Positions 3,117 to 51,621 of a DNA stretch of 64,000 nt are shown here, piece after piece. Each line of letters opens with the position of its first letter. The first letter of the stretch is position 1. The stretch spans positions 23,123,144-23,187,143 of the forward strand of contig OU342634.1 in NCBI GenBank assembly GCA_910589415.1, given 5' to 3'. The translations under genes and the position numbers were made by a program. The notes under the pieces are model-generated. The model saw only the letters and a program-made list of their open reading frames with translations, had not been told where the DNA came from and did no database searches. Source of the DNA: Malachius bipustulatus. Lineage: Eukaryota > Arthropoda > Insecta > Coleoptera > Melyridae.

Positions 3117-5287
3117 AAGTAAAACATCTTACAAATGAAACCAGGTTTTTTTGTTTGAGAAATACTTCAGACTTCAGCTCCAGTTGGAGCACGTTTTTCA
3201 TTTTATTGAAAAAAAGAGCTTGTTTTAATCAGAAAAAAGGTAATTGCTGGGGAATACATGTCTGATGAAATTGCTCCCCCAAGGTACCCCTACCCGCCTC
3301 TTATACCCAAATTCATAATTATTAAACATTAATTTTAATTGTTTTTCAAGCCATAAACTTTCGAAGATTAATAACAAATAGGAATAGTTGATTGAAGGGC
3401 TCATAAATCAGAGTAATGTTTCTCTGAAATAAATTTTGGTAAATAAAAAAATTCTGGTTATTTTACCAGATTACCTTTTACCTCTACCCTGATTTTCATT
3501 TTTTAATCCTATTTAATACTTTTTGAAAACTAAATATGTATAAATTAAAGGTTTCGCTTAAATTTTCTCAAGAAATCAGCTACTGAAAGAACTTCAAAAC
3601 ATAATACATGATTCCACGGGTATCCCGGGAACGAGGTGTATTCCCTAGTAATTCGGTTGAAAGAAATTTCTTGGGTAGCCATGTTTGTTTATTCAATTAA
3701 TTAATTAATGGCCATATTAAAGCAAGTAATGGTGGCATGTAACTGTGTCTCCCAGGAATGATCAACCAATGAATGATGTATGAAATTATAATAATAAATT
3801 ATTAACTAAAATATTTTTATTAATTTAAATTTTTACAAAAATTAAGTACATAATTTTAAAAGTGATTATAATATAGGTAATATTTTAAAATAGAAAATAT
3901 GCAATAAAAGTAATAACTATCCAACTCATATATCACAGAATTAATACAATGCAATGACATTATAATACATAGTTGCCAACAACCTCATTTTCTAAAATAA
4001 TATAATATATCAATCTATTAAAAAAACATGCAATTACTACTTCATTTAGCTAATAACAAGACACAATTCTTTAAACTAAGAACAACCTAGATAATATTAA
4101 AAGGAAGGAAATTAGATGATTACCTAAAGGAATTTGTATGTTTTAAGTAAAGTTGATTTTTCCCTTTCTCGTTCCTCTAACATTATAAAAGGTATATTTA
4201 AATATTTTGCAAGGACTGAAGATATTAAATTATTTTATTTATAAAAGTGTTCAAGAAATAAGTTACTTATAATAATTATAATAAAGTTTGACGCTTCTTC
4301 AAATATCAAAAATTGTTAAAACACAATAAACATTTTATTAGGTACCTACTATTGTTTGTTGAATAATCTAATACCTGCTCTAAAAGCCGCCCTGCAAAAA
4401 AATTTTTCAAGCAAATAAATAAAGCACTTCTTTTCAGGTAGGTTGACTTTCATTTATATGGTCGTGGTTCTAAATAAAATATAAAAATAAGCCAACTCAT
4501 TCCCATTCTTTGTGATGTATGAATAAAAATGTCTTTATTCACTTAAAAATAGTCTAATAGTGTAAAAACAAAGTGCATAATCAAACATTAATGTCCAATT
4601 TTAAATTTGAGTTTGAATAATTAATTCTGGTTAAAAAATATTGTCATAGCAGTACCATTTTGTTTTCATTGTTGGCGTTAATTAACAACACAAATTAATG
4701 CATTTGGTAGAACTCGACATACGAGACATGAACGTGTTTTAAGCTACTAAATTCGTCATTACATGAAGACAGCTTCACATATTGCCACGACTTGGTCTGA
4801 AGGCTATCTGGCAATAGAGCAACAACCAACATAAATCTTAAGGATTCAAATCATTTTAGTATGACTAAATGCATAAACCTTGATCTTGATTACTGACACA
4901 ATCAATTTAATAGCAAAATTGATGATGATATATTATGTAAAACCATTGTTACTGCATAAAGTTTGAATTTTTATGACTTGGATTGCTTTAATAGTGCCTG
5001 CTATGCTTTATCCAATTGATTCTCAGATGAGTTGAGTCAACTTCACAAAACCGAACATTAAGTCTGATAAGGTAAGTAAAATTATTGTCATAACAATGTG
5101 ATAAACCAATTCAACAATTTTAAAATTGAGACCACCTCTCAACCTTGTTTTATAAATCACATTCAGGATTGCAACAATATAAAATTACAAAAATATTTTG
5201 ATAAAATATACAAACTTACAAAATAACTTGGATTTCTGTTATTGACATAAAAATAAATGAGATTCCATTTTTTTTCTAGTTCAGAAG
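3117..5287. other. Convergent intergenic region (3'UTRs of V-ATPase c'' and Ptp10D)
   Basis: About 2.2 kb of very AT-rich DNA between two stop codons facing each other. AATAAA hexamers at 3428-3433 and 3442-3447 are candidate poly(A) signals for the V-ATPase transcript. No reading frame or element recognised. It presumably holds both 3'UTRs; their exact ends cannot be read from sequence alone. Confidence 0.5.
3428..3447 (+). terminator. Candidate poly(A) signals for V-ATPase c'' mRNA
   Basis: Two AATAAA hexamers 14 bp apart, about 310 bp after the stop codon. Such hexamers are frequent by chance in this AT-rich DNA. Confidence 0.4.
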
Positions 5288-17570
<12,283 letters not shown>

Positions 17571-44654: not shown

Positions 44655-44658
44655 AGTG
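44655..44658. repeat. Target-site duplication AGTG (left)
   Basis: AGTG immediately before the TG of the 5' LTR, matching AGTG at 51618-51621. The flanking identity extends to ACAAGTG because the LTR itself ends in ACA. Confidence 0.85.
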
Positions 44659-45498
44659 TGAAATGGATCGCACCTAGGTAGGATTATAAGGAAATTATTT
44701 CCTTCGCCTCATTAAATCAGCTCAAACCGAAAAAGCAAATAGTGCGAGATTAGGTACGTAAATACCTAAAGGTAAAATTGTTAGAAAATCAAAGCGCAGC
44801 CACCCGCCGTTACATCAAGTAAATGATCCCGCCAGCACATTAAATATTCATAAAACAAAATCGCTCCAGCTAGCCACAATTCAGTCCTTCGAGAAAGCGG
44901 CAACGGCGAGGGCAAACCTTTGCCAGATGTTAGGGCAGACACTGTCGGTCCGCGTGATGAAATAATAGGTGACCTACATACAAGAACGGATGGAAAGAAA
45001 CAGACCGTGTGAAGGAATGTGAAATCAGAATTTAAACAATAAGCCTTCGCAAAGACAAAAGTAACTCAGTAGTTATTACACCTACGACAATGAAAAGTTC
45101 ACCAATCGATAGGGCGAATTAATAAACCCCAATAGCCGGAAAAGCACCCCGGTACCTAAACGGCAAGCAGGTGTAAACGCGAAGTGAAAGTTAAGTCGGT
45201 GTAATTATAATAACTAGACACAATGAGAAGTACCCAAACGCGTTGACCGATTTGAAGGAAAATTTAGATAGTGCGGGTTTAGGAAAATTCAGTGAGATAG
45301 CCGCGAGGTTAAATCGCTAAGTCCAGTAATCAGGAAAATACGATTAAGGACTAAATCACGGCAGCAGAGAAGAGTCAATAAGGTTCATTATTGCGCGATG
45401 TTTAGAAATCGGGCGACTGCTTCTATAAAAGCAAACGTCCTGCCGCTGCTCCAGGCAGATGAGATCAGCTTTCGAGCAGGTCACGTCTGACTCCATAA

Positions 45499-45710
45499 CC
45501 CTTTGGCGTAAACCCGACGAGAAGGCGTTCAGTGAACTCTCGGTCGCCCAATCCTTATCTAAACCCAACCCTTTGGACATAAACCCGACGAGAAGACGTT
45601 TAGTGAACTCTCGGTCGCCCAATCCTTATCTAAACCAAACCCTTTGGACGTAAACCCGACGAGAAGGCGTTTAGCGAACTCTCGGTCGCCCAATTCTTAT
45701 CTAAACTCTA
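45499..45710 (+). repeat. Tandem repeat, 3 x about 70 bp, in 5' LTR
   Basis: Units begin CCCTTTGG at 45499, 45569 and 45640 and share TAAACCCGACGAGAAG and GAACTCTCGGTCGCCCAA. Copy in the 3' LTR at 49057-49268. Confidence 0.9.
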
Positions 45711-47376
45711 CCCACATAAATTTGCATCTCTCCTCTAAACAACTCAAACTTCGCAGTTGGCAAACTCTCTTCACAACAAAATCCACGTCGATAAATAATC
45801 AAACAGATTCACCAATCCATGAGCGCAGGTCCCATTTTAAATCAGACACAATAATCAACTAGGTATTAGGCGGCACCACAATAGGTACCTACGCAATTAC
45901 GTCAATAATTAGAAATAAACCAAGTTAGGCAGGAAACAGGAATAAATAATTACATATTCACGCATAGGAAATTGAGTTAGAGCTAGGAGCGAAAATAGAC
46001 CCAGGTCAGGAATTAATATGTAAACCAAACGGCCCATGATTCAATCGTCCTGTTCTTCGAAGAGTCCGAGTTTTTATTTAGCGCAGATGTAGGCAAGCAC
46101 CGGCTGTCCCTTTAAATCCGATATTAGAGAGTGAAAGTGAGAAATACTTCCCATTGTATGGCGTTATATGACAGGAACTCGCAACAGTAGGTTGAGCCCC
46201 AAATAGAACCAAGCAAGCTAAGGCAGCGTTGTCAGATGTAGCACCCGCTACTTATTTACATTATCAGGGAATACTAATTCCATTACAACACCCAATTAAG
46301 AGTTAAAATAGGTAGTCGATCATCCCCCGGGGGAGGGATCCACCTCGATGTCCAGGTGAAGACCTCCGTTGTACCGGAAAGTGGAAATCATAGATCGCAA
46401 CAGGGCAAAAGCACCCTCAGAGTAGGATAGCGTAACGCAAACCAAAGCAAGGTTGCCAGGTGTAATAACCGCCCTCACATATCAGGAAATCCAATAACCA
46501 AAATAAAGTTAGGATCAGGAATTGCAATTCACGAATAAAACATCCAAAGCAAATCAAAATTAATCCCGAGTATGGGAAAGCCAATTTAGATCCAGAAACC
46601 AAAGTGTCTTTATAAGGTCGTTTTTCCGAATCTCTTCTAACCAGATTTTATACATACCTGAATCTTATGTGACAAACGTTATTATTATGTTCTCATCATA
46701 CTATCTACGCTCTTTGGGTTGATAGGTCGACGTACTCGTGTTACTGGCGGACCGGTGGCTGGTGCCGTACAATCAAATAAGTAAATTTGTCCGTAAACAT
46801 GCCTAAACACGAATGAGGGATAAAAGTCCAGCATTTCCAATCATTAACTAGATTAATGGTTAAAGAGTCGTGGTCTGTAGTATGGTCAGCTGATAATCAC
46901 GTTGAGGAGCAAAGATCTTCGAGAACGGAGCCAACATGCTCTGGGTAATAAATCAAGGTGTGTAGAAAAATCTACAATAATACAGTTGATTAAGGTTTCA
47001 ATCAGAAAAGCAAATAAGGTAAATCACAAGGTATAACAGTGACAAATGCCTAAGGGCAAGGTAACTTATGTGACCTAAAGGTCGCCTGACGAGGCAGCAT
47101 CGACGGGTGCAATAAAAGGTAGAACAAGACAAATAACAACAAGGTATACAAAGTGATAACTAAATACAGTATCACCCAGGTTATGAATTAAATAAACGGA
47201 GGTGAAATAATTCACTCTCCTAGGTAAATCAACTGTGAAAATAAAATCATTAAATAAAAGAGAATCGGAAGGAACGATTTTATAAATGATACGAAATCAA
47301 AATTCCGGAGAAGTGGCAACCCTGTACTCGAATGAATCTCGCAAGGCAAAGAAAATCATTGAATAGTTAAACAGCC

Positions 47377-47605
47377 AGACATTTCCGCCAAACCCGGATA
47401 GTCTGTAAACCGAAACAAAAGCAAAACGAAATAATAAGACATTCCCGCAATATACCGGGTCGTCTGTAAAACGAAATAAAAGCAAAACGAAATAATAAGA
47501 CATTTCCGCATATACCGGATAGTCTGTAACCGAAATAAAAGCGAAACGAAATAATAAGACATTCCCGCATATACCGGGTAGTCTGTAAACGAAACAAAAA
47601 CCAAA
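47377..47605 (+). repeat. Tandem repeat, 4 x about 60 bp, in 5' LTR
   Basis: Units begin AGACATT(T/C)CCGC at 47377, 47437, 47498 and 47557, followed by ACCGG(A/G)TAGTCTGTAA and a polypurine-like AACGAAATAATA stretch. Units 1, 2 and 3 differ by small changes. The 3' LTR copy is at 50935-51163. Confidence 0.9.
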
Positions 47606-48060
47606 AAGAAAGCACAGGTGTGTAAAAGAGTGGAATCCGAAATGGATTATAGTTTGAAAGATGGATGAAAGGGATCCCTCTTCGCTTTCCATTTTTTTGT
47701 ACTCTCTATGCAAAATCACAGCCCAACTCGCCTTTCATCACTTTACGCCCTTACAAACGAATTCTCTCGCTCATCACTCGCTTTTAAACATCTGATAGGA
47801 AGCCAACAGTTGACAACAAGTCTCAGTAAATTTCCCCGCTTTTCCGACAAAAGAAAAATCCCAGTAGGTTCTTTGCGCATCCGTTTCGGTCATAGTAATC
47901 CTGGCATACCTCAATCAAAGAGCAGGGGTGACTACGGTAATTACGGTAAACACAACGTAGGAAAACACAAACGGTCCTGTTAGGAGAAATTAGGGAAACT
48001 AGACGATCACAAGGTGGCTTTTCGCTGCAGATCCTGCGACCCGGGGTCTAAACGTTACAT

Positions 48061-48078
48061 TGGTGCCAGCGACCAGGA
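48061..48078 (+). promoter_or_regulatory. Primer-binding site
   Basis: TGGTGCCAGCGACCAGG starts one base after the LTR. TGG complements the CCA tail shared by all tRNAs; the matching tRNA would end CGCTGGCACCA. I have not matched it to a specific tRNA. Confidence 0.8.
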
Positions 48079-48165
48079 TTGAGGGCTAATACGCGGGAAT
48101 AAATTGGCCGAGAAGGAAAACAAAACCGAAGAAGAACACGAAAACCAAGTAGGAGAGTTAGGGGG

Positions 48166-48207
48166 CGTCTTCCGTCTATCAGGGTACCCGCTGATAGCCT
48201 GAAGACG
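48166..48207 (+). other. Stem-loop with self-complementary GGTACC loop
   Basis: CGTCTTC (48166-48172) pairs with GAAGACG (48201-48207), and CTATCAG (48176-48182) with CTGATAG (48191-48197). A 3x3 internal loop separates the two 7-bp stems. The 8-nt apical loop GGTACCCG contains the palindrome GGTACC. The structure ends at the polypurine tract. Retroviral dimerisation hairpins have this architecture; the role here is inferred. Confidence 0.7.
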
Positions 48208-48216
48208 AGGGGGCGG
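48207..48216 (+). promoter_or_regulatory. Polypurine tract
   Basis: GAGGGGGCGG directly precedes the TG of the 3' LTR. It is purine except for one C, as expected for the plus-strand primer of an LTR retroelement. Confidence 0.8.
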
Positions 48217-51200
48217 TGAAATGGATCGCACCTAGGTAGGATTATAAGGAAATTATTTCCTTCGCCTCATTAAATCAGCTCAAACCGAAAAAGCAAATAG
48301 TGCGAGATTAGGTACGTAAATACCTAAAGGTAAAATTGTTAGAAAATCAAAGCGCAGCCACCCGCCGTTACATCAAGTAAATGATCCCGCCAGCACATTA
48401 AATATTCATAAAACAAAATCGCTCCAGCTAGCCACAATTCAGTCCTTCGAGAAAGCGGCAACGGCGAGGGCAAACCTTTGCCAGATGTTAGGGCAGACAC
48501 TGTCGGTCCGCGTGATGAAATAATAGGTGACCTACATACAAGAACGGATGGAAAGAAACAGACCGTGTGAAGGAATGTGAAATCAGAATTTAAACAATAA
48601 GCCTTCGCAAAGACAAAAGTAACTCAGTAGTTATTACACCTACGACAATGAAAAGTTCACCAATCGATAGGGCGAATTAATAAACCCCAATAGCCGGAAA
48701 AGCACCCCGGTACCTAAACGGCAAGCAGGTGTAAACGCGAAGTGAAAGTTAAGTCGGTGTAATTATAATAACTAGACACAATGAGAAGTACCCAAACGCG
48801 TTGACCGATTTGAAGGAAAATTTAGATAGTGCGGGTTTAGGAAAATTCAGTGAGATAGCCGCGAGGTTAAATCGCTAAGTCCAGTAATCAGGAAAATACG
48901 ATTAAGGACTAAATCACGGCAGCAGAGAAGAGTCAATCAGGTTCATTATTGCGCGATGTTTAGAAATCGGGCGACTGCTTCTATAAAAGCAAACGTCCTG
49001 CCGCTGCTCCAGGCAGATGAGATCAGCTTTCGAGCAGGTCACGTCTGACTCCATAACCCTTTGGCGTAAACCCGACGAGAAGGCGTTCAGTGAACTCTCG
49101 GTCGCCCAACCCTTATCTAAACCCAACCCTTTGGACATAAACCCGACGAGAAGACGTTTAGTGAACTCTCGGTCGCCCAATCCTTATCTAAACCAAACCC
49201 TTTGGACGTAAACCCGACGAGAAGGCGTTTAGCGAACTCTCGGTCGCCCAATTCTTATCTAAACTCTACCCACATAAATTTGCATCTCTCCTCTAAACAA
49301 CTCAAACTTCGCAGTTGGCAAACTCTCTTCACAACAAAATCCACGTCGATAAATAATCAAACAGATTCACCAATCCATGAGCGCAGGTCCCATTTTAAAT
49401 CAGACACAATAATCAACTAGGTATTAGGCGGCACCACAATAGGTACCTACGCAATTACGTCAATAATTAGAAATAAACCAAGTTAGGCAGGAAACAGGAA
49501 TAAATAATTACATATTCACGCATAGGAAATTGAGTTAGAGCTAGGAGCGAAAATAGACCCAGGTCAGGAATTAATATGTAAACCAAACGGCCCATGATTC
49601 AATCGTCCTGTTCTTCGAAGAGTCCGAGTTTTTATTTAGCGCAGATGTAGGCAAGCACCGGCTGTCCCTTTAAATCCGATATTAGAGAGTGAAAGTGAGA
49701 AATACTTCCCATTGTATGGCGTTATATGACAGGAACTCGCAACAGTAGGTTGAGCCCCAAATAGAACCAAGCAAGCTAAGGCAGCGTTGTCAGATGTAGC
49801 ACCCGCTACTTATTTACATTATCAGGGAATACTAATTCCATTACAACACCCAATTAAGAGTTAAAATAGGTAGTCGATCATCCCCCGGGGGAGGGATCCA
49901 CCTCGATGTCCAGGTGAAGACCTCCGTTGTACCGGAAAGTGGAAATCATAGATCGCAACAGGGCAAAAGCACCCTCAGAGTAGGATAGCGTAACGCAAAC
50001 CAAAGCAAGGTTGCCAGGTGTAATAACCGCCCTCACATATCAGGAAATCCAATAACCAAAATAAAGTTAGGATCAGGAATTGCAATTCACGAATAAAACA
50101 TCCAAAGCAAATCAAAATTAATCCCGAGTATGGGAAAGCCAATTTAGATCCAGAAACCAAAGTGTCTTTATAAGGTCGTTTTTCCGAATCTCTTCTAACC
50201 AGATTTTATACATACCTGAATCTTATGTGACAAACGTTATTATTATGTTCTCATCATACTATCTACGCTCTTTGGGTTGATAGGTCGACGTACTCGTGTT
50301 ACTGGCGGACCGGTGGCTGGTGCCGTACAATCAAATAAGTAAATTTGTCCGTAAACATGCCTAAACACGAATGAGGGATAAAAGTCCAGCATTTCCAATC
50401 ATTAACTAGATTAATGGTTAAAGAGTCGTGGTCTGTAGTATGGTCAGCTGATAATCACGTTGAGGAGCAAAGATCTTCGAGAACGGAGCCAACATGCTCT
50501 GGGTAATAAATCAAGGTGTGTAGAAAAATCTACAATAATACAGTTGATTAAGGTTTCAATCAGAAAAGCAAATAAGGTAAATCACAAGGTATAACAGTGA
50601 CAAATGCCTAAGGGCAAGGTAACTTATGTGACCTAAAGGTCGCCTGACGAGGCAGCATCGACGGGTGCAATAAAAGGTAGAACAAGACAAATAACAACAA
50701 GGTATACAAAGTGATAACTAAATACAGTATCACCCAGGTTATGAATTAAATAAACGGAGGTGAAATAATTCACTCTCCTAGGTAAATCAACTGTGAAAAT
50801 AAAATCATTAAATAAAAGAGAATCGGAAGGAACGATTTTATAAATGATACGAAATCAAAATTCCGGAGAAGTGGCAACCCTGTACTCGAATGAATCTCGC
50901 AAGGCAAAGAAAATCATTGAATAGTTAAACAGCCAGACATTTCCGCCAAACCCGGATAGTCTGTAAACCGAAACAAAAGCAAAACGAAATAATAAGACAT
51001 TCCCGCAATATACCGGGTCGTCTGTAAAACGAAATAAAAGCAAAACGAAATAATAAGACATTTCCGCATATACCGGATAGTCTGTAACCGAAATAAAAGC
51101 GAAACGAAATAATAAGACATTCCCGCATATACCGGGTAGTCTGTAAACGAAACAAAAACCAAAAAGAAAGCACAGGTGTGTAAAAGAGTGGAATCCGAAA

Positions 51201-51617
51201 TGGATTATAGTTTGAAAGATGGATGAAAGGGATCCCTCTTCGCTTTCCATTTTTTTGTACTCTCTATGCAAAATCACAGCCCAACTCGCCTTTCATCACT
51301 TTACGCCCTTACAAACGAATTCTCTCGCTCATCACTCGCTTTTAAACATCTGATAGGAAGCCAACAGTTGACAACAAGTCTCAGTAAATTTCCCCGCTTT
51401 TCCGACAAAAGAAAAATCCCAGTAGGTTCTTTGCGCATCCGTTTCGGTCATAGTAATCCTGGCATACCTCAATCAAAGAGCAGGGGTGACTACGGTAATT
51501 ACGGTAAACACAACGTAGGAAAACACAAACGGTCCTGTTAGGAGAAATTAGGGAAACTAGACGATCACAAGGTGGCTTTTCGCTGCAGATCCTGCGACCC
51601 GGGGTCTAAACGTTACA
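48217..51617 (+). repeat. 3' LTR, 3401 bp
   Basis: Differs from the 5' LTR at two positions that I noticed (48938 and 49110); the rest appears identical, including both tandem blocks. Followed by AGTG, the right target-site duplication. Confidence 0.95.
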
Positions 51618-51621
51618 AGTG
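51618..51621. repeat. Target-site duplication AGTG (right)
   Basis: Matches 44655-44658 on the other side of the element. Confidence 0.85.

What the first reader, a model, noticed from the sequence alone, without database searches (positions are those of the whole stretch)
44659..51617. Giant-LTR, near-zero-interior retrotransposon
Two 3401-bp LTRs with TG...CA ends, a 4-bp target duplication, and only 157 bp between them carrying PBS and PPT. TRIMs have small LTRs and small interiors; LARDs have large LTRs but kilobase interiors. This combination (98% LTR by length) fits neither. The cis elements look intact, so it should be mobile in trans. The sequence shows the structure; non-autonomy follows from the absence of any coding domain; novelty is inference.
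Basis: partly seen in the sequence, partly recalled or inferred. Interest (0 to 1): 0.9.

Follow-up and report, generated by a model that had tools for sequence, protein, structure and literature searches.

The report
Giant-LTR, tiny-interior retrotransposon family
This is a recently inserted copy of a family of parasitic jumping genes that carry almost nothing between two enormous end repeats, so they must borrow all their proteins, and the family fits neither of the two textbook kinds of borrowed-machinery element.

Summary
Two 3401-bp LTRs (2 mismatches), TG...CA ends, a 157-bp interior and an AGTG target duplication lie at 44659-51617. It is neither a one-off deletion nor an assembly doubling. 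The genome holds at least 12 other copies with two LTRs of about 3.4-3.8 kb and about 155 bp between, plus one with a shortened 5' LTR. Seventeen of 18 giant copies (5 of 6 complete, 12 of 12 solo LTRs) have perfect 4-bp target duplications. Fifty-nine of 65 hairpin hits have a primer site at a near-fixed distance. The interior holds a primer site for host tRNA-His (altered in this copy), an A-rich spacer, a hairpin and the polypurine tract. The string CTATAAAAGC (TATA box) is in all 18 giant LTRs and in none of four short-LTR relatives (269-774 bp). Best reading: a young non-autonomous LTR retrotransposon family moved by another element's proteins; long LTRs carry the promoter, and TRIM-sized copies are deletion products (both inferred). 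No coding partner was found, but the search was incomplete. A new variant between TRIMs and LARDs.

The parts
44655..44658 (+). Target-site duplication AGTG, left
44659..48059 (+). 5' LTR, 3401 bp, TGAAATGG...GTTACA
   Evidence: family copies
45424..45429 (+). TATA box in 5' LTR (LTR position 766); the string CTATAAAAGC is in 18 of 18 giant LTRs, 0 of 4 short LTRs
   Evidence: promoter role inferred
45497..45713 (+). 71-bp tandem repeats, 3.1 copies, in the LTR
47394..47611 (+). 59-bp tandem repeats, 3.6 copies, in the LTR
48060..48216 (+). Whole interior, 157 bp (154-157 in the 31 copies aligned, this one among them)
48061..48080 (+). Primer-binding site TGGTGCCAGCGACCAGGATT; variant of the tRNA-His type (TGGTGCCGTGACCAGGATT) found in other copies
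48166..48207 (+). Hairpin with the palindrome GGGTACCC at its loop; z -4.43 against shuffles; possible dimerization/packaging signal (inferred)
   Evidence: covariation not above shuffles
48207..48216 (+). Polypurine tract GAGGGGGCGG
48217..51617 (+). 3' LTR, 3401 bp
51618..51621 (+). Target-site duplication AGTG, right

Best explanation
A young copy of a multi-copy, non-autonomous LTR retrotransposon family. SHOWN: giant LTRs (about 3.4-3.8 kb), an interior of about 155 bp with PBS, hairpin and PPT, 4-bp target duplications, near-identical LTR pairs within a copy, and solo LTRs. INFERRED: a host polymerase transcribes from the LTR TATA box to a poly(A) site in the other LTR. A coding LTR element (most likely Ty3/Gypsy-like, given the 4-bp duplication) supplies Gag, RT and integrase. 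Reverse transcription starts from tRNA-His, the PPT primes the second strand, and integrase makes the 4-bp duplication. The hairpin may pair two RNAs for packaging. Short-LTR copies without the TATA string look like deletions made during reverse transcription, which copies one change into both LTRs.
For: LTR pair identity 3384/3396 to 3411/3412 in six giant copies (window 3399/3401), against 90-98% between these copies, gaps not counted, as reverse transcription predicts. 17 of 18 giant copies have perfect 4-bp duplications, of 11 different sequences. Near-fixed PBS-to-hairpin distance in 59 of 65 hairpin hits. Host tRNA-His genes whose 3' end complements the family's other PBS version: 9 pattern matches, and 3 of 3 fetched loci gave a tRNA-His call in ARAGORN. 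No coding frame: longest LTR frame 145 aa against 153 aa at the 95% point of 100 shuffles, and 0 Pfam families for five LTR frames. CTATAAAAGC in 18 of 18 giant and 0 of 4 short LTRs. Short LTRs join different LTR positions (w143 to w3217; w99 to w2703), with a shared GCGCA at one join.
Against: No coding partner was found. The own-genome DNA searches scored only 40 of 1836, 40 of 160 and 40 of 1226 candidates, and the PPT search that could have exposed coding relatives did not complete. One giant copy (L010) lacks a matching 4-bp duplication. The PBS of this copy departs from tRNA-His, and no tRNA 3' end with its version was found (0 of 9 matches). Hairpin covariation is not above shuffles (159 of 500 reach it), and the whole interior folds no better than shuffles (z 0.33). 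There are no RNA data. Two short copies without the TATA string (L051, L053) have target duplications, so they moved at least once.
Confidence: 0.86

Rival explanations
1. The giant-LTR copies are internal-deletion derivatives of a coding element with the same long LTRs that is still in this genome, so the family is simply a LARD-like deletion series with an extreme interior.
For: Coding capacity must come from somewhere, and some TRIMs are known to arise by internal deletion (PMC10886601, passages). L067 has the hairpin, PPT and LTR start but other DNA upstream.
Against: Among the 40 + 30 match rows paired, no same-strand neighbours have a spacing that a coding interior would give: all are 3.5-4.0 kb except one damaged copy, one third LTR 2.8 kb away and one pair 22.6 kb apart whose downstream member (L018) is a solo LTR. 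These rows are part of the family only. About 237 bp of the L067 upstream stretch found no other copy (40 of 65 candidates scored). Fifty-nine of 65 hairpin hits share one geometry.
Confidence: 0.25
2. It is an ordinary TRIM family, and the giant LTRs are TRIM LTRs that gained about 3 kb of foreign DNA.
For: Short-LTR members exist with the same kind of interior (L047, L051, L053, L066). The join in L051 leaves GCGCA on both sides of the extra DNA in the window's LTR, as a 5-bp insertion duplication would. L066, an older relative by its LTR divergence, is short.
Against: Short LTRs keep different parts of the middle (L047 keeps w1-196, L053 keeps part of the 59-bp array), which separate deletions explain and a single insertion does not. 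Only giant LTRs have the TATA string. No inverted ends were seen at the L051 join (by eye).
Confidence: 0.15
3. Assembly artefact or segmental DNA duplication of a 3.4-kb unit.
For: A tandem LTR-interior-LTR-interior-LTR copy exists (L051), so recombination at DNA level does happen.
Against: Target duplications at 17 of 18 giant copies, in mostly unrelated flanks; LTR pairs of six copies differ by 1-6 substitutions.
Confidence: 0.01

Closest known systems
TRIM (terminal-repeat retrotransposon in miniature), e.g. PbTRIM of the harvester ant (PMC3532108, passages read)
   Same: Interior non-coding with PBS and PPT; 4-bp target duplication in PbTRIM as here; tandem LTR-interior-LTR arrays as in Cassandra (PMC7215508, passages).
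   Different: TRIMs are under 1000 bp with LTRs of about 100-350 bp; here complete copies are 6.9-7.3 kb (six measured). PbTRIM uses a leucine tRNA site, this family a histidine one.
LARD (large retrotransposon derivative)
   Same: LTRs of several kb, no coding capacity.
   Different: LARDs have a central domain of about 3.5 kb (PMC3532108, passages); here it is about 155 bp.
SMART, small LTR element of grasses (PMC3281118, listing and abstract start only)
   Same: A very small element without coding capacity (the latter as described in PMC10886601, passages).
   Different: 292 bp in all; complete copies here are over 20 times longer.
Helenus / Ajax / Cassandra TRIMp3 (PMC10886601, passages)
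   Same: Non-coding LTR elements thought to be moved in trans; primer-site switching within a lineage.
   Different: Their LTRs hold sequences from tRNA or 5S rRNA genes, proposed Pol III promoters; here a TATA box, and no Rfam match at the gathering score in the element.

Membership tests
LTR retrotransposon | Two near-identical direct LTRs with TG...CA ends | tested here: met
LTR retrotransposon | Target-site duplication | tested here: met
   AGTG here; 17 of 18 giant copies
LTR retrotransposon | PBS complementary to a host tRNA | tested here: met
   Met for the family's other version (tRNA-His); the window copy has AGC for GT within the site
LTR retrotransposon | Polypurine tract before 3' LTR | tested here: met
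   31 of 31 aligned copies, one (L050) with one change; altered in the older relatives L065 and L066
TRIM | Interior non-coding and almost only PBS and PPT | tested here: met
   157 bp
TRIM | Total size under about 1000 bp, LTR about 100-350 bp | tested here: not met
   6959 bp, LTR 3401 bp; only the short-LTR relatives L047, L051 and L066 are within the LTR range
LARD | LTRs of several kb | tested here: met
   3401 bp
LARD | Kilobase-sized non-coding core | tested here: not met
   157 bp
Ty3/Gypsy superfamily | Order RT-RNaseH-INT in pol and RT phylogeny | not testable with these tools
   no coding sequence in the element; partner not found
Non-autonomous element moved in trans | No coding capacity | tested here: met
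Non-autonomous element moved in trans | Identified coding partner | tested here: inconclusive
   none among scored candidates; the PPT-junction search did not complete

The most novel reading that the evidence does not exclude
The family is a distinct, self-maintaining class of trans-mobilized retroelement, 'all LTR': every cis signal sits in about 155 bp plus the LTRs, the multi-kilobase LTR is the functional part (promoter, long repeated R region, perhaps RNA length for packaging), and TRIM-sized elements appear as dead-end deletion products of it. That would give one route by which TRIMs arise.
Probability: 0.35. Interest if true: 0.72.

Novelty: new variant of a known kind. Interest (0 to 1): 0.58.

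Why it matters
Non-coding LTR elements are filed as TRIM (small LTRs, small interior) or LARD (large LTRs, large interior). Here one family keeps a TRIM interior inside LARD-sized LTRs and also has small-LTR copies, so LTR length and interior length vary independently. It shows how few bases are needed between the LTRs of a 7-kb element that has moved recently, and offers a natural series for asking which LTR parts trans-mobilization needs. Annotation pipelines that demand a minimum interior, or that cap the LTR share, might call these copies tandem duplications or miss them (inference).

Tried and rejected
Coding in the LTR: rejected; the longest stop-to-stop frame is 145 aa, on the minus strand across the 59-bp repeats, and 100 shuffles reach 153 at the 95% point; five frames gave 0 Pfam families. 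Known RNA in the LTR: the same sub-threshold hit in each LTR only (E 0.17, 24.9 bits against a cut-off of 43.2). Autonomous partner through the primer site: the 20-mer tRNA-His site has 531 matches with up to 2 mismatches (reversed control 0), but 45 of the 81 exact ones are not paired with a hairpin hit. Five of those 45 were read (L069-L073), along with three one-mismatch sites (L074-L076). By eye none showed an evident gag-like frame within the roughly 400 bp read; no domain search was run on them. At least three (L069, L072, L074) lie in another repeat. L064 (3-mismatch primer hit) and L068 (3-mismatch hairpin hit) were judged chance. L067 looked like a partner's 3' end, but part of its upstream stretch belongs to another repeat and about 237 bp found no other copy. 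Host name: the one protein search gave no useful name; the family search for a mitochondrial gene did not complete. The host is taken as an arthropod from recall, not from any call. Paper searches: six answered (one search held 0 papers), one sent back for a five-word term. Judged by titles and abstract starts, none listed a family with kilobase LTRs and an interior of this size. That covers open-access full text only, not Repbase or Dfam.
Full report
WHAT IS THERE. The window holds two direct repeats of 3401 bp at 44659-48059 and 48217-51617, with two substitutions between them and no gap. They start TGAAATGG and end CGTTACA. Between them lie 157 bp (48060-48216). AGTG stands directly outside both ends. 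The genome is 544 Mb in 52 contigs, with the window at C6:23123144-23187143.

IT IS A FAMILY, NOT AN ACCIDENT. A search of the same genome with one LTR found 115 matching stretches while scoring only 40 of 1836 first-look candidates. A search with the interior and 30 bp of LTR on each side scored 40 of 160 candidates and gave 41 matches, 40 of which run from the primer end of the interior into the next LTR. A search with the last 562 bp of the LTR scored 40 of 1226. These counts are lower bounds. Pairing neighbouring matches on one strand (40 rows and 30 rows) gives 14 two-LTR copies, the window among them. In 13 of them the LTR-to-LTR spacing is 3526-3934 bp; the fourteenth (C6:13142670) has a shortened 5' LTR (spacing 2638 by the 5' parts, 3969 by the 3' parts). 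For all 14 the tiny interior is shown by sequence or by a primer site and hairpin at the right places. Other neighbours are a third LTR at C13:9205237 (2814 bp away) and two copies 22.6 kb apart, the downstream one of which is a solo LTR (L018). Among these rows no pair has the spacing of about 8 kb or more that a coding interior would give.

INSERTION BY INTEGRASE. For six complete giant copies the LTR pairs match at 3399/3401 (window), 3384/3396, 3411/3412, 3381/3382, 3564/3566 and 3564/3569 positions, while different copies match at 90-98% with gaps left out. Thirteen single-LTR loci were examined. Twelve are solo LTRs of 3377-3673 bp, each with a perfect 4-bp target duplication (in L015 two candidate ends were found, and one of them has it); L027 did not give both ends. 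Adding five of six complete copies, 17 of 18 giant copies have the duplication, of 11 different sequences; L010 does not. In flanks of 400 bp from 21 copies (18 giant and L051, L053, L066), six matches were listed, in five pairs of flanks, one of them between the two flanks of L018; the rest are unrelated. DNA-level duplication or misassembly would not give this pattern.

THE INTERIOR. Thirty-one interiors, the window's among them, are 154-157 bp and align with few changes. They hold a primer site one base after the LTR, an A-rich middle that comes in two versions, a hairpin, and the polypurine tract GAGGGGGCGG (one change in L050). In 2 of the 30 loci L029-L058 no LTR end of the expected kind stands upstream (L041, none recognised; L049, an inverted LTR start). 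The primer site comes in two versions. TGGTGCCGTGACCAGGATT is complementary to the 3' end of host tRNA-His including CCA: the tRNA 3'-end pattern has 9 matches in the genome, and each of the three loci fetched gave a tRNA-His call. The window has AGC (48068-48070) where that version has GT. Its 24-mer with LTR edge has 23 exact matches, the window included, so it is not a private mutation, but none of the 9 tRNA 3' ends has AGC. Which tRNA primes this version is open.

The hairpin pattern has 65 matches with up to 3 mismatches and none for the reversed control. In 59 of the 65 a primer site starts upstream at 112-120 bp, counted from the start of each pattern (23 of the window's type, 36 of the exact tRNA-His type). 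The six others are three places without a listed primer site that were not read (C4:46097487, C1:89168676, C16:33394670), L066 with another primer site, L067, and L068, a chance match. The hairpin alone folds better than all 200 shuffles (z -4.43); the whole interior does not (z 0.33); the L061 copy has changes that break the fold. The loop contains the palindrome GGGTACCC, reminiscent of retroviral dimer-initiation loops (recall). Only one pair shows a change on both sides, and 159 of 500 shuffles do as well, so the structure rests on folding energy and conservation, not on covariation.

THE LTR. It has no coding frame beyond chance, no Pfam match in the five frames tested and no Rfam match at the gathering score. 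It has a TATA box (TATAAA at LTR position 766; 45424 in the window). The exact string CTATAAAAGC is in 18 of 18 giant LTRs. In the window 71-bp and 59-bp tandem repeats follow. Giant LTRs differ by whole segments: one group (L017, L020, L021, L022, L023, L024) shares about w1-1981 and w2841-3401 but has a mostly different middle, so the LTRs look modular.

SHORT-LTR RELATIVES. Four copies with the same kind of interior have short LTRs: L066 269/271 bp, L047 279 bp (second LTR cut short), L051 322 bp and L053 772/774 bp. L051 (duplication GACG) and L053 (ATAC) have 4-bp target duplications; L066 has none I could see and is older, with 22 substitutions between its LTRs. None has the string CTATAAAAGC. 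L051 joins w143 to w3217 at a shared GCGCA, L053 joins about w99 to w2703, and L047 keeps w1-196. Different joins argue for separate deletions from long LTRs. A deletion made during reverse transcription would appear in both LTRs at once, as seen in L051 and L053. The GCGCA could also be the footprint of an insertion, so the direction is inferred. L051 is LTR-interior-LTR-interior-LTR, the array form known from Cassandra TRIMs (PMC7215508, passages).

HOW IT MOST LIKELY WORKS. Shown: the layout, the integration signature, the primer match of the family's main version, and the lack of coding. Inferred: Pol II transcription from the LTR TATA box; packaging of the RNA into particles of a coding LTR element, helped perhaps by the hairpin; priming by tRNA-His; PPT-primed second strand; integration by the helper's integrase with a 4-bp cut. 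The helper is probably Ty3/Gypsy-like, from the 4-bp duplication (recall), but was not found. Insertion of this copy is recent, with 2 substitutions in 3401 sites; no clock was applied.

THE PARTNER QUESTION. Of 81 listed exact tRNA-His primer sites, 45 are not paired with a hairpin hit. Five of these and three one-mismatch sites were read for about 400 bp downstream; by eye no gag-like frame was evident. L067 has the hairpin, PPT and LTR start joined to other DNA, of which about 237 bp found no other copy (40 of 65 candidates scored). A scan for the PPT-LTR junction, the best test, was sent 13 times between and never answered. So absence of a coding relative is not shown.

COMPARISON AND NOVELTY. 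The ant TRIM paper gives LARDs as about 4.4-kb LTRs with about 3.5-kb centres and TRIMs as under 1000 bp with LTRs of about 100-350 bp (PMC3532108, passages); a 2024 paper also sets TRIMs below 1000 bp (PMC10886601, passages). The element meets the interior criterion of TRIM and fails its size criterion, and meets the LTR criterion of LARD and fails its core criterion. It works like both and is a member of neither as defined. Six answered paper searches listed no such family by title and abstract start; Repbase, Dfam and subscription papers were not searched. I call it a new variant of a known kind.

Noticed in passing
L049 (C6:28994255-28997440), about 1280-1510: A copy in which an inverted LTR start plus an inverted stretch of the PPT is joined directly to the primer site, giving inverted LTR starts around one interior; may be an autointegration or strand-transfer error product.
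   Followed up: partly
L051/L058 (C4:46310469-46314154): LTR-interior-LTR-interior-LTR array of a 322-bp-LTR member, flanked by GACG on both sides.
   Followed up: partly
genome-wide; L069, L072, L074 as examples: The 20-mer that equals the tRNA-His primer site, CCA complement included, occurs 531 times with up to 2 mismatches, partly inside another dispersed, minisatellite-like repeat without evident coding. Its origin is unexplained.
   Followed up: partly
window 48068-48070; 23 exact sites in the genome, window included: Two primer-site versions (GT versus AGC) coexist in many copies, although reverse transcription should copy the tRNA into the site. Only the GT version has a matching tRNA 3' end among the 9 found.
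   Followed up: partly
L066 (C1:88582350-88587350), 2127-2812: Older short-LTR relative with another primer site (TTGGCGCCAAGTAACCAGG) and the hairpin stem kept by a paired change.
   Followed up: partly
L067 (C6:5400200-5405200), 2247-2560: Hairpin, PPT and LTR start joined to unrelated DNA with a short open frame, next to frames that may come from another mobile element.
   Followed up: partly
window 8907-12001, minus strand: Exons of a receptor-type tyrosine phosphatase-like gene (fn3 and PTP_tm domains).
   Followed up: no
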